IMG/VR virus record: IMGVR_UViG_3300038701_000335
Span: 1-20,077 of that record
Reading direction: 5' to 3' (one strand)
Source of the DNA: a virus
DNA length: 20,077 nucleotides
A model generated the notes under the pieces. The model was not told the DNA's origin. It was given only the letters and a program-made list of their open reading frames with translations, and made no database searches. This document shows, one piece after another, positions 7,616 through 14,195 of the stretch (position 1 is its first letter; each line of letters begins with the position of its first letter). The translations under genes and the position numbers were made by a program.

Positions 7616-8094
7616 CAGAAGAGGCCCGGAAACTGTGCTGGGTTCATCGTGTCGCCCGGATAGGGTTCTGACAGAAAGTTCTCGACAACCAGATCAGCCC
7701 GAAGCACATCCGCGTTGTAATCGACGTTCACCACCTCGAAATCGGACCATTGAGCCAGCGCAGTATCTGGGTCATCGGCTGCGATGATCGTAACGGTCGC
7801 GAATATGCGTTCCCGGCTTCCAGCTACCGAACGGAAGTCAGTGACGAACTCACCTACAGCATCCATCACAGCGATCTGAATCCGGGGCTGGAATTCGTCA
7901 GTGTCTGGCGGTGCGATGATCGAGAATGGAAACCGCAAGTAGGTATCACCGTTTGAGACGATGTCTTCGGTGTTGTTCACGACGCGTTGCGTGTCGAACG
8001 TCGAATGTGTGAACTCTACGAGAACGAGGAACGCCTCACCTGTTGATGCAGCGTTCAGAGCCTCGACAATCGTCGTTGGGATAGAACGGGCCAT
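7615..8094 (-). CDS. DUF1833-family minor tail protein (gpL position)
   Basis: This protein has 159 residues from the ATG at 8094, chosen because it overlaps the upstream stop as TAATG; the frame stays open upstream, but that extension only overlaps the previous gene in another frame. The fold pattern is that of DUF1833: an N-terminal LVLVEFTHSTF strand pair, a central FRIQIAVMDA-type stretch (EFQPRIQIAVMDAVGEFV), and a C-terminal EPYPGDTMNPAQFPGLF segment typical of the family. These proteins occur where lambda has gpL, between the M-like protein and the NlpC/P60 peptidase, and are thought to sit in the tail-tip hub. Lambda gpL binds an iron-sulphur cluster through C-terminal cysteines; this protein has no cysteine, so it cannot do that. 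Confidence 0.85.
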   Translation of the reverse strand: MARSIPTTIVEALNAASTGEAFLVLVEFTHSTFDTQRVVNNTEDIVSNGDTYLRFPFSIIAPPDTDEFQPRIQIAVMDAVGEFVTDFRSVAGSRERIFATVTIIAADDPDTALAQWSDFEVVNVDYNADVLRADLVVENFLSEPYPGDTMNPAQFPGLF

Positions 8095-8453
8095 TACGGC
8101 AGCAACTCCAGCGACAGAGATACTTTCCAATGACCAGTTGGACCGGCAGCGTTGATCAACTGCATCTCTGGCGGCTCCATGAAGCGGAATGTCTTGGTCG
8201 ACTTGTCGAGCGGATCGTTCATCGTGAACTCACCAGCACCTTCACCCAGCGTCGTGCTGTAGAACGTCTCAAACGTGTCACGCTGCCCCTTGGTCAGCGT
8301 CATCGTGCCAGTCAGATATCGCGACGTGGCTGTGAACCGTTTGCGTTGCTTGGCTGGTCCTGCGTCATTCGCAGTCCGGATGAAGCCCTGTTGGCGGCGA
8401 TCCGTTATCCCAAGTTCCATGTATCCCGGAAGGGACGCAGGCCATGCTGACAT
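8094..8453 (-). CDS. gpM-like minor tail protein
   Basis: This protein has 119 residues. The N-terminus (SAWPASLPGYMELG) and the stretch AGPAKQRKRFTATSRY are familiar from tail-tip proteins encoded straight after the tape measure in many proteobacterial phages. The middle and C-terminus (TKGQRDTFETFYSTTLGEGAGEFTMNDP, ending HWKVSLSLELLP) fit the pattern of lambda gpM: a helix presenting an F-x-x-F face, an F-rich loop with a Pro, and a final beta strand. The assignment rests on these patterns and on its place before the DUF1833 and NlpC/P60 genes. It shares 1 base with the next gene. Its 5' end overlaps a promoter-like element that points the other way, toward the lipoprotein gene. Confidence 0.75.
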   Translation of the reverse strand: MSAWPASLPGYMELGITDRRQQGFIRTANDAGPAKQRKRFTATSRYLTGTMTLTKGQRDTFETFYSTTLGEGAGEFTMNDPLDKSTKTFRFMEPPEMQLINAAGPTGHWKVSLSLELLP

Positions 8454-8475
8454 GTTTGCTATTCCCGGTTAAGAT
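8447..8475 (+). promoter_or_regulatory. Predicted sigma70-type promoter for the lipoprotein gene
   Basis: CTGACA at 8447-8452 (5 of 6 to the -35 consensus) is followed after exactly 17 bases by TAAGAT at 8470-8475 (4 of 6 to the -10 consensus). Transcription would start near 8482, about 23 bases before the ATG of the lipoprotein. It is the only promoter-like element I can support in the window, and it lies in front of the only plus-strand gene. It also overlaps the first codons of the gpM-like gene on the other strand. Confidence 0.6.
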
Positions 8476-8490
8476 CCATCCAGACTTGAT

Positions 8491-8496
8491 GGAGAG
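8491..8496 (+). promoter_or_regulatory. Ribosome binding site of the lipoprotein gene
   Basis: GGAGAG lies 8-10 bases before the ATG at 8505. It decides the start: the in-frame ATG at 8514 has no such site. Confidence 0.65.
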
Positions 8497-8504
8497 ATTT
8501 TCAA

Positions 8505-8801
8505 ATGCGCCACATGATTGGATTTGTAGCGGCAATCGCATTAGCAGGGTGCGCATCTGCTCCACCCCGGTTTAACCTCGCGCCAAAAGACAGAGTAAAA
8601 GTCCGAGATGTAACTGTTTCTGTTCAGCAACGAGGCGTTGAGGCTTATGCTCAGGTCGTTGCAACCGATGGCCTAATTCGAGTTTACGATGATTTCGAAG
8701 ACATCGATATTCTGAGGGAAGCAATCGAAACTTCGACCGGATGCAGTGTCGAGAACCAGACCACACGGGAAGGCACAATGTTGGCTGATCTTGCCTGCTA
8801 A
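8505..8801 (+). CDS. Small outer-membrane lipoprotein, moron-type gene
   Basis: This 98-residue gene is the only convincing one on the plus strand. Residues 1-15 are a lipoprotein signal peptide with lipobox L13-A14-G15-C16, so Cys16 would be lipidated; the +2 residue is Ala, which by the E. coli rule favours the outer membrane. The mature 83 residues are soluble and mixed alpha/beta, with two more cysteines (in TGCSVEN and at the last residue) that could pair. It has its own promoter-like element and ribosome binding site. A hand count over 8581-8700 gives about 47% G+C, against roughly 57% over 8161-8220 in the neighbour. Its stop overlaps the tape measure stop by 4 bases, tail to tail. Such lone, oppositely directed lipoproteins in tail clusters are often expressed from the prophage; known examples block receptors or superinfection. 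I do not recognise the family, so the function is inference. Confidence 0.78.
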   Translation: MRHMIGFVAAIALAGCASAPPRFNLAPKDRVKVRDVTVSVQQRGVEAYAQVVATDGLIRVYDDFEDIDILREAIETSTGCSVENQTTREGTMLADLAC

Positions 8802-10939
8802 CGCCGTGTCGTCGGCTGGCTTAGCTGAAACGTCTGCTTGATTGCCTTATGGACACGCCCGCCTCCTGCAACACTTCTGGCGACAGCTTGTTCAACCATG
8901 ATTTCGAGGTTGGGCCCTTTTTGTTCTGCTGAGATATCCGCACCGGACGTGTTCGTGATGTTGACAATCACTGGTGATCCGGTCCCAGACGCAGCAACCC
9001 CGAGCTTTCCACCTGGACCGCGCGACAGCGGCATGATGGCCTCTGGACCAGCCTCGCCCATCAACCCTGTGCCATTCGACATTGGGAACGTTGTCGGGCC
9101 TGAAACGATCCCACCTGATGCGAACGGCGTGACGCGGCCGGACGAAAAAACTCCACCCTTTGCAAAGCCTGCAGGCAGTGAACTGGCAGCGCTCGCAGAA
9201 GCTGCTGAACTGCCCGAGCTTGTCAGCAATCCGGCAATCCCATCGGCGCTGACTCCGATCAGGTCGTTAAACGCACCACCCAGTGGACCTTTTCCAAGTG
9301 CAGCATTCGCAGCCAGTTCCAGAAGCTGAAGTCCGATTGCTTTGAGCGCATCCTCGAAGGATTCTGCGTTCTTCACTGCGTTGATGAACTTGTCCGAAGT
9401 CGATTTAATCGAGTTGGCAAGGTCTTCCTGTTCCTTTTTGGCGGCCTTTGATGCCTCTTTGACTTTCTCCAGAGCTTCGGCTTCGTCGAAGATCGCGAGT
9501 GTCAGTTGCTGCGTTTGATCCGCAAGTTCGTTCGCGCGCTGAATCTCTTCTGCAGTCGCTGCGGTTCCATCTTTCTGTGCGGCGTTGAGCAGTTCGCGAA
9601 CCAGCCTTTCTCGGTCGAATGCTGCCGATAGTTCCTCGGCTGCACGTTCGGTCAGACCTATCTTCTGACGCTCGACCTCCAGAGCATCGATGCGATCTTG
9701 AACACGTTCGATTTGCTGTGGGAACTGATCGCGTTTTTGTCTGGACCGCCCACCGCGTCGTTTTCGCTTTGGTCTGTTGCGTCGGGTTATCTCGGAGGTG
9801 ACGCTGGATGATACTGCCACTGGCAGGCCGAACAGTTTGTCTTCAGCAGCGATGTCAGGACGTCTGCTCAGCAGGAACGATTGGGTCTCAAACGCCACCC
9901 GTGCAGCTCGCGCCGCTGCCTGAAGCTCTTCCTTCAAAACAGCAGCCTGATCGATGAACCTGCCAGTCTCGTCTGCACCGTTAGAAATTGCTTCCGAGAG
10001 ACGGTCTGCCGTCGCAGTTGCTTCAATCGTCTTTAGATCAAGATTGGACATCTGCTTGACTGCTTGAAAAATCTCTGCTGGAAGATCCTCCAATCGCACA
10101 CCATAGGCATCCAGTTGGCCGTTGATCTCGGCCCAAACTTCCCTCTTTTCTTGAAGCGTGTCGGCACCTTCGAATGCCAGCAGAGCTTTGTTCAGCGCCC
10201 GTGCTTGATCGATCGTTATTCCGAACGCTTCACTGAGCGGTTGCAGCGCGTTCAGCAATTGCTCCGTCCGACGCGCGGCCTCTCCAGGGTTGAATTCTTC
10301 AATCTGTTTGATCTGCTCTTCGCGTCCCGGCACGGTCAACTCATCGAACAAACCAGACATGGTTTCGGTAAGGCTTTCGACTTTGCGCCGCACATCTTCG
10401 ACAGCCAGCCCAGACAACTCGACCCTCAGACGATTCACCTCGTCAGCATTCTCACCAAATCGTTCAGTCAGCTCTTCAGTGCTAAGGGAGAGAAGCTCCT
10501 GCGCGTCACGGGCGGCACTGTGCGCCGCAGTAAGCCCTTTCATGGCCTCCTTTGACATCTTTGCCGCATCGGCGGATTCGAAAAACGACGACGCAACGGC
10601 ACCAGTCACGGCAGCAAGAATACCAAGCGTGACGCCTGCAGGACCAAACACCGACAGGATTTGCGGCCCCTGTTGTGAGAAGATACGCAGCGCGTCCGTT
10701 CCCATTTCTGCCTGAACTGCAACGTCCTGGATCTGCTGGCCAAAGTTGATGAAACTCGCCCGACCCTGCCGCGAAAATTCGAAACGGGTAGACCGGCTGA
10801 CACGCTGCTGCATCTGTGCTGCGCGTTTTTCAATCGCAGCGGACTGTCGACTATGCACCTGTCGAGCTCGAACCATTCCAGATTCAAAACGCCCTGTAGT
10901 GGCGTCAATCCGAACGTTGAGGTGTGCAGCTTCATCCAT
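8798..10939 (-). CDS. Tail tape measure protein
   Basis: This 713-residue protein has tape-measure features: an alpha-helical body, a hydrophobic stretch at about residues 93-120 (PAGVTLGILAAVTGAVASSF), coiled-coil regions rich in Glu, Lys and Ala, and a Gly-rich C-terminal segment (AKGGVFSSG, FASGGIVSG, GLMGEAGPEAIMPLS) found in many phage tape measures. These proteins fix tail length and are ejected with the DNA. By the rough family rule of 1.5 angstrom per residue the tail would be near 105 nm. A very basic patch lies at about 381-403 (RRNRPKRKRRGGRSRQKR). The ATG overlaps the end of the upstream -1 frame by 8 bases. The stop overlaps the convergent lipoprotein gene by 4 bases. Confidence 0.92.
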   Translation of the reverse strand: MDEAAHLNVRIDATTGRFESGMVRARQVHSRQSAAIEKRAAQMQQRVSRSTRFEFSRQGRASFINFGQQIQDVAVQAEMGTDALRIFSQQGPQILSVFGPAGVTLGILAAVTGAVASSFFESADAAKMSKEAMKGLTAAHSAARDAQELLSLSTEELTERFGENADEVNRLRVELSGLAVEDVRRKVESLTETMSGLFDELTVPGREEQIKQIEEFNPGEAARRTEQLLNALQPLSEAFGITIDQARALNKALLAFEGADTLQEKREVWAEINGQLDAYGVRLEDLPAEIFQAVKQMSNLDLKTIEATATADRLSEAISNGADETGRFIDQAAVLKEELQAAARAARVAFETQSFLLSRRPDIAAEDKLFGLPVAVSSSVTSEITRRNRPKRKRRGGRSRQKRDQFPQQIERVQDRIDALEVERQKIGLTERAAEELSAAFDRERLVRELLNAAQKDGTAATAEEIQRANELADQTQQLTLAIFDEAEALEKVKEASKAAKKEQEDLANSIKSTSDKFINAVKNAESFEDALKAIGLQLLELAANAALGKGPLGGAFNDLIGVSADGIAGLLTSSGSSAASASAASSLPAGFAKGGVFSSGRVTPFASGGIVSGPTTFPMSNGTGLMGEAGPEAIMPLSRGPGGKLGVAASGTGSPVIVNITNTSGADISAEQKGPNLEIMVEQAVARSVAGGGRVHKAIKQTFQLSQPTTRR

Positions 10940-13157: not shown

Positions 13158-14195
13158 TTAGTTGGACGAGTGACCGCGAACGAGGACCGCAGGACGCATG
13201 CAGACAGGAAGGCTGTTGAACTGTGCCATAACATCCACCCACTGGTCATATTTCGGATCCGGTGCGGTCTTAGCGTAATAGTCACGGCCTGGCGTGTTCA
13301 CGGTCTCCATGAAGTCGGCTGGAGCGTTGAACATGCGGAAGGTTGATCGCGTTCCGACGGGGAAGAATCTCGCGTCTCCGTCTGGCACGAATGCTTGCGT
13401 GGTGATTGAGCCATCTTCTTGAGGGACACCTGCAGATCCGAGGTATTTCTCAAACATGACGCCTTGGTACAGGAAACCATCTGTGACGTCGTCACGTTGC
13501 GGGTTCGGACCACTGTTGAAGTCGTCGTATGCGCGCTTGACGTCTTCGAACTGAAGCAACTTGTCCATCCACTGCTGTGAGGCCAAGCAATGGACACCTG
13601 TCATCATGTCGCCGAGAAGATTCAGCGTGATGTGGTCTTTGACCTCGCGAACCTTTCCAGCAACATCGGTCGAGGCTGTGCCCAACGTGAAGTCGACAAC
13701 CTTCTGGGAAACGCCGAACTCGGTGAACATCGAATGGATCAGAGACCCGTCCGCGTCACGAACTTCACCGCGCAATGCGCCAGCTCGAAGGTATTCCTTC
13801 GTGATGTCACTTGCGGATCGAATATCCTCGAGGCGGTCATTGACCTCGTCCATGACCTGCATCAACTCGGTCTCTTCGCCAAAGGCTCGGATTCCCGAAA
13901 CATCGTCAGCAGTGATCCGGCTTTCCCGTGCGAAGCGGCGAGCACGGAAGTCACGCATGACTCGCTTTCCGCGTTCTTGCGGAGGGATTGGAGAACCCCG
14001 CTCCGATGACTGGATCAGCGACAGTACACCGTTCTTGGATTCGATCTGGAAGCCAGGCGTTCGAACTGGTTTCGGCGTGAACAGGTTCATTTCGCCAATA
14101 CGTCCGAACTGGTTTGGAATTACCCGGATTGCCTCACCCATCGCTCGGGTGTTGAAGGCGTCCGGATTCGCACGAAAAATGTCGAGAGTAGCCAT
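13158..14195 (-). CDS. E: Major capsid protein, lambda gpE type
   Basis: This 345-residue protein is the length of lambda gpE (341) and clearly of that family. Family-like segments include the opening DIFRANPDAFNTRAMGEAIR, then FTPKPVRTPGFQIESKNGVL, the P-P-Q-E-R-G run (IPPQERGKRVMRDFRARRF), and the central DVNDR-type helix (MDEVNDRLEDIRSASD). It folds into the shell subunit of the icosahedral head; 400 or more copies are needed per head in lambda. Expression must be high, and it has the strongest ribosome binding site seen (AGGAGGG, 4 bases before the ATG). Unusually, both sides of the gene carry stable UUCG hairpins, and 87 bases separate it from the decoration gene, the longest gap in the head cluster. 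Confidence 0.95.
   Translation of the reverse strand: MATLDIFRANPDAFNTRAMGEAIRVIPNQFGRIGEMNLFTPKPVRTPGFQIESKNGVLSLIQSSERGSPIPPQERGKRVMRDFRARRFARESRITADDVSGIRAFGEETELMQVMDEVNDRLEDIRSASDITKEYLRAGALRGEVRDADGSLIHSMFTEFGVSQKVVDFTLGTASTDVAGKVREVKDHITLNLLGDMMTGVHCLASQQWMDKLLQFEDVKRAYDDFNSGPNPQRDDVTDGFLYQGVMFEKYLGSAGVPQEDGSITTQAFVPDGDARFFPVGTRSTFRMFNAPADFMETVNTPGRDYYAKTAPDPKYDQWVDVMAQFNSLPVCMRPAVLVRGHSSN

What the first reader, a model, noticed from the sequence alone, without database searches (positions are those of the whole stretch)
8447..8801. Lone lipoprotein gene against the grain of the tail operon, with its own promoter
Seen: every other gene runs on the minus strand, but this 98-residue gene runs on the plus strand. 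It has a CTGACA-N17-TAAGAT promoter-like element, a ribosome binding site, a perfect lipobox (LAGC, Cys16) and about 47% G+C in its middle. It is wedged exactly between two tail genes and overlaps the tape measure stop. Known: 'moron' genes of this kind are expressed in the lysogen, and several phage lipoproteins (Cor, Llp, and similar) block receptors or stop superinfection. Inference: this is a prophage-expressed surface lipoprotein that changes phage adsorption or the host envelope. I do not recognise its mature domain, so it may be a new family.
Basis: partly seen in the sequence, partly recalled or inferred. Interest (0 to 1): 0.68.

Follow-up and report, generated by a model that had tools for sequence, protein, structure and literature searches.

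The report
Phage-carried relative of host lipoprotein
A virus of bacteria carries, slotted backwards between two tail genes, a small gene whose product is a distant relative of a membrane-anchored protein of unknown function that most bacteria of the order Rhodobacterales keep as a single gene.

Summary
An intact 98-codon ORF (8505-8801, +) lies between a conserved tail gene (8094-8453, -) and the tape measure gene (8798-10939, -). It has a lipobox with Cys16 and a ribosome binding site, and it overlaps the tape measure stop by 4 nt. The junction is otherwise tight: -4 to +27 nt in 90 of 93 measured related phage loci, and -4 to +7 nt in 19 of 19 Rhodobacterales prophage loci. The 344 nt here are therefore an added cargo segment of lower G+C (49% against 56%), a 'moron' in anatomy. 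The promoter match is no better than chance for the stretch, no terminator was found, and nothing shows that this 20 kb record is a prophage. The protein has no Pfam, NCBIfam or PHROG family. It is, however, a divergent homologue of an unnamed family of small lipoproteins found in 251 of 391 sampled Rhodobacterales genomes, usually once, beside cobN/cobO, smc or a TsoY-like gene. It keeps the three invariant cysteines but has lost the GD and Arg motifs. No other viral copy was found. Best reading: a host-derived envelope lipoprotein carried as phage cargo. An exclusion role is plausible but unshown. It is not a Cor, Llp or spanin relative by sequence.

The parts
8505..8801 (+). 98-aa lipoprotein gene, divergent homologue of a Rhodobacterales chromosomal lipoprotein family; signal peptide residues 1-15, lipidated Cys16, invariant Cys80 and Cys98
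8454..8797 (.). 344-nt segment present here and absent from the same junction in relatives; 49.1% G+C
8447..8475 (+). promoter-like site CTGACA-N17-TAAGAT, right place but not above chance in the scan
8491..8496 (+). ribosome binding site GGAGAG, 8 nt before the ATG
   Evidence: sequence
8798..8801 (.). 4-nt overlap of the convergent tape measure gene and lipoprotein gene, stop codon over stop codon
8094..8453 (-). tail gene downstream of the tape measure gene (PHROG 384), intact at its start
8798..10939 (-). tape measure protein, aligned to its last residue with a Bradyrhizobium phage homologue, so not damaged by the insert

Best explanation
This is a moron-like cargo gene: a divergent descendant of a chromosomal Rhodobacterales lipoprotein, inserted cleanly between the tape measure gene and the next tail gene, facing the other way. 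Shown: the extra segment, the intact ORF, the lipobox, the homology. Inferred: the protein is exported by Sec, cut before Cys16 and lipid-anchored; Cys80 and Cys98 form a disulphide in a small beta-beta-alpha-beta-beta domain; it is transcribed apart from the late tail operon. Most likely function: it takes the place of, or competes with, the host's own family member for an unknown partner in the envelope and so alters the envelope of the infected or lysogenic cell, with superinfection exclusion the most likely benefit (about 0.3 for that last step).
For: Junction closed in 90 of 93 measured related loci. The three exceptions are a transposase-type insert (L103), an apparent frameshift or truncation in the tape measure gene (L035) and another gene on the same strand (L046). 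Also closed in 19 of 19 Rhodobacterales prophage loci. Family: matches in 20 of 395 genomes of one Rhodobacterales family with the single sequence, the best of them full-length; alignment A3 shows C16, C80 and C98 invariant; the profile finds 251 of 391 Rhodobacterales genomes, mostly one copy each, and in a class-wide sample only two strong hits, both in genomes also drawn for the Rhodobacterales searches. The mature part alone scores 39 bits against the 14-member profile (shuffles max 7.4) and 26 bits against a profile of 26 other members (shuffles max 7.2). Chromosomal context cobN, cobO, smc, TsoY-like. Position antisense to late genes is described as characteristic of moron loci (PMC7067206).
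Against: No transcript data. The promoter is at chance level and no terminator was found. The window is a fragment with no identified integrase or repressor, so lysogeny is not shown. The G+C of the gene (50%) and its GC3 (43%) are below those of the phage genes, so a recent copy from a high-G+C host is unlikely. The tree places it on a very long branch (2.36) with weak support. The family's own function is unknown.
Confidence: 0.72

Rival explanations
1. A true superinfection-exclusion lipoprotein that works like Cor or Llp, binding an outer-membrane receptor from the periplasm.
For: Small lipoprotein with a probable disulphide, as in Llp/Cor (PMC9586334). Ala at +2 would allow outer-membrane sorting by the enterobacterial rule, whereas 28 of 40 chromosomal members have Asp there (crude count).
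Against: Cor PHROG matches residues 1-22 only, E 0.12. The mature part is instead homologous to a chromosomal family. Enterobacterial sorting rules were not tested for this host.
Confidence: 0.25
2. Passenger host DNA with no benefit to the phage, caught in the act and decaying.
For: Unique to this record; lost GD and Arg motifs that at least 90% of relatives keep; long branch.
Against: The ORF is open with its lipobox, three cysteines and RBS kept across great divergence, which indicates selection; it interlocks with the tape measure gene without harming it.
Confidence: 0.25
3. The plus-strand transcript itself matters: with no terminator it would run antisense into the tape measure mRNA and damp tail synthesis or exclude relatives, like asRNA STnc6030 of prophage BTP1.
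For: Convergent, overlapping stops and no terminator found. Precedent of an asRNA to late genes that excludes phage (PMC7067206).
Against: The match to a conserved protein family shows selection on the peptide; no RNA evidence.
Confidence: 0.1
4. An outer-membrane spanin (Rz1-like).
For: Weak PHROG spanin matches, E 0.06 and 0.29.
Against: Matches confined to the signal peptide and early residues; the neighbours are tail genes and no inner-membrane spanin partner was noted beside it; the mature part belongs to another family.
Confidence: 0.03

Closest known systems
Unnamed small-lipoprotein family of Rhodobacterales chromosomes (alignment A3; members beside cobN/cobO, smc or a TsoY-like gene)
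   Same: Length about 100 aa, lipobox, Pro/Phe motif after the lipid Cys, AIE..[TS]GC motif, terminal L.C, three invariant cysteines
   Different: Phage copy lacks the GD and the Arg that at least 90% of members keep, has Ala not Asp at +2, 25-35% identity, lower G+C than its surroundings
T5 Llp and the Cor lipoproteins of T1/phi80 (PMC9586334)
   Same: Small phage lipoprotein with a probable disulphide
   Different: No sequence match to the Cor profile beyond the signal peptide; the mature part here is of a host chromosomal family
Ltp of Streptococcus thermophilus phage TP-J34 (PMC3952083, found)
   Same: Phage-coded lipoprotein of the cell envelope, there linked to exclusion
   Different: Gram-positive host; no sequence relation was tested
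Moron loci antisense to late genes, e.g. STMMW_20121 of prophage ST64B (PMC7067206)
   Same: Orientation against the late operon and probable own transcription
   Different: Transcription is shown there, not here

Membership tests
Moron | Extra gene between two genes that are adjacent in related phages | tested here: met
Moron | Different base composition from neighbours | tested here: met
   49% against 56% G+C, GC3 0.43 against 0.54-0.67
Moron | Own promoter and terminator | tested here: inconclusive
   promoter-like site at chance level, no terminator found by a simple scan
Moron | Expressed in the lysogen | not testable with these tools
   no RNA data; lysogeny itself not shown
Rhodobacterales small-lipoprotein family (A3) | Profile match of the mature part beyond composition and signal peptide | tested here: met
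   39 bits and, with members not in A3, 26 bits; shuffles at most 7.4
Rhodobacterales small-lipoprotein family (A3) | Lipobox Cys plus two further invariant cysteines | tested here: met
   C16, C80, C98
Rhodobacterales small-lipoprotein family (A3) | Common, not defining: GD and Arg motifs (at least 90% of aligned members) | tested here: not met
   absent in the window protein; hence 'divergent homologue', not orthologue
Rhodobacterales small-lipoprotein family (A3) | Common, not defining: chromosomal neighbourhood (cobN, cobO, smc, TsoY-like) | tested here: not met
   the window copy lies among phage tail genes; the context is shared by most but not all chromosomal members
Cor superinfection exclusion protein (PHROG 1119) | Profile match over the mature part | tested here: not met
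   E 0.12, residues 1-22 only
Rz1-like spanin | Profile match beyond the early residues and an adjacent Rz partner | tested here: not met
   E 0.06 for residues 1-51; neighbours are tail genes

The most novel reading that the evidence does not exclude
The phage protein is a mimic of a widespread Rhodobacterales lipoprotein, retargeted from inner to outer membrane (Ala instead of Asp at +2) and stripped of two conserved motifs, so that it acts as a decoy for the host protein's partner and thereby blocks infection by rivals or evades a host defence.
Probability: 0.15. Interest if true: 0.7.

Novelty: new member of a known kind. Interest (0 to 1): 0.42.

Why it matters
It ties a phage cargo gene to an unnamed lipoprotein family that most sampled Rhodobacterales carry (251 of 391) but that none of the three curated libraries searched here names. 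That gives two testable handles: what the host family does beside cobalamin and smc genes, and why a phage would carry its own altered copy.

Tried and rejected
Pattern scans of viral and genome collections with the protein itself found nothing, as did tblastn in plasmids (one chance-level hit). The Vibrio H20-type 'putative lipoprotein' hit (29%, E 0.1) lies beside a CI repressor and rests on the signal peptide and a gapped tail: rejected. L197 viral hit: a 16-residue chance match in a short unrelated frame. Viral scans with family alignments gave no phage relative, but these scans are insensitive. Single-sequence AlphaFold models are weak (pLDDT 55 and 64). Fold searches gave no match at E 0.001 or below and no Z above 5.0: no fold claim is made. 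Flanking direct repeats were looked for and not found. Larger gaps in L035 and L046 are not comparable inserts.

Full report
The window is a 20,077-base virus record with a phage head and tail module whose 22 assignable genes all run on the minus strand. The one exception is the ORF at 8505-8801 on the plus strand, 98 codons, with GGAGAG 8 nt upstream and a lipobox ending at Cys16. Its stop codon and that of the tape measure gene overlap head to head (4-nt gene overlap, 8798-8801).

Is the gene an addition? I collected loci coding for the neighbouring tail gene (PHROG 384; 8094-8453) from viral contigs, phage records and genomes and measured the distance from the tape measure stop to its start. 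It is -4 to +27 nt in 90 of 93 measured loci (a few are overlapping copies of one contig). The three outliers are a transposase-type insert (L103), an apparent frameshift or truncation within the tape measure gene (L035) and a different gene on the same strand (L046). In 19 of 19 further prophage loci of Rhodobacterales genomes it is -4 to +7 nt. In the window it is 344 nt. The tape measure protein still aligns to its last residue with a Bradyrhizobium phage homologue and the tail gene starts as in its relatives, so the insertion is clean. No flanking direct repeats were found.

Is it a gene? Its codon log-odds are positive (0.138 per codon) while the five other frames are negative. G+C is 49% in the insert against 56% in the window, and GC3 is 0.43 against 0.54-0.67 in the phage genes. 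An ORF this long would arise in 3% of simulated inserts. The promoter-like site is real but is what chance gives in this stretch (1 found, 1.0 expected), and no terminator was found.

What is the protein? Pfam, NCBIfam and PHROGs give only weak matches, mostly to the signal peptide region, and pattern scans find no close relative. A six-frame search of 395 genomes of one Rhodobacterales family, however, gave matches of 31-38% identity over most of the length in lipoproteins of about 100 residues. Fifteen sequences align with Cys16, Cys80 and Cys98 invariant, and with a Pro/Phe motif after the lipid Cys, AIE..[TS]GC, GD and a terminal L.C. A profile of this alignment finds a match in 251 of 391 Rhodobacterales genomes, usually one per genome. 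In a class-wide sample of 240 genomes only two strong hits appear, both in genomes also drawn for the Rhodobacterales searches. Chromosomal members lie beside cobN/cobO, smc or a TsoY-like membrane protein gene; a few, including the window's nearest tree neighbours, lie beside an alpha/beta hydrolase gene. The neighbour names cobN, cobO, smc, TsoY and hydrolase are my reading of the sequences, not a profile result. No member is recognised by the three libraries.

Because members were first picked by similarity to the window protein, I tested the relation again. The mature part alone scores 39 bits against the 14 chromosomal members (about 500 shuffles, best 7.4) and 26 bits against a profile of 26 members not in that set (best shuffle 7.2). 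Those 26 were found with a profile that included the window protein as one of 15 rows, so the test is nearly but not wholly independent. The homology is therefore well supported but distant. The window protein lacks the GD and the Arg that at least 90% of members keep, and sits on a long branch. It has Ala after the lipid Cys, where 28 of 40 relatives have Asp (crude count). Asp at +2 is a LolCDE avoidance signal that keeps lipoproteins in the inner membrane of gram-negative bacteria (PMC5727369, abstract), but whether Rhodobacterales follow that rule was not tested.

How does it most likely work? Sequence supports export and lipid anchoring. A disulphide between Cys80 and Cys98 and a small beta-beta-alpha-beta-beta domain are suggested by conservation and by low-confidence models. 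I infer that it acts in the cell envelope in place of, or against, the host's own copy. Phage lipoproteins of small size are known to exclude rivals (T5 Llp and Cor, PMC9586334; Ltp, PMC3952083), and a region antisense to the lytic genes is described as characteristic of moron loci (PMC7067206). Those are analogies, not membership: the Cor profile covers only the signal peptide. Whether the phage is temperate is unknown, as the fragment has no identified integrase or repressor gene; I did not scan every window protein against the libraries for one.

Verdict: an ordinary kind of phage cargo with an informative twist, namely that its source family is a widespread, unnamed host lipoprotein. No other viral member was found, though the viral scans are insensitive.

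Noticed in passing
L103:3903-5010: In an uncultured Rhodobacteraceae genome a transposase-like gene (zinc-ribbon, IS1595-like by eye) sits just upstream of the PHROG 384 tail gene, where the tape measure gene should end, so this junction tolerates insertions.
   Followed up: partly
L009:1-239: Rhizobium phage RHph_Y3_1 has a small hypothetical gene on the opposite strand just before its tape measure gene: another against-the-grain gene in a related tail operon.
   Followed up: no
13158-14195: The major capsid protein is closest (42%) to Wolbachia phage WO, while the tail genes resemble Bradyrhizobium, Rhizobium and Rhodobacter phages: a head/tail mosaic.
   Followed up: partly
L132-L163: The unnamed Rhodobacterales lipoprotein family lies in a recurrent neighbourhood with cobN, cobO, smc and a TsoY-like gene, and has no Pfam or NCBIfam match.
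   Followed up: partly
1-921: No convincing gene was assigned in the first 0.9 kb of the window.
   Followed up: no
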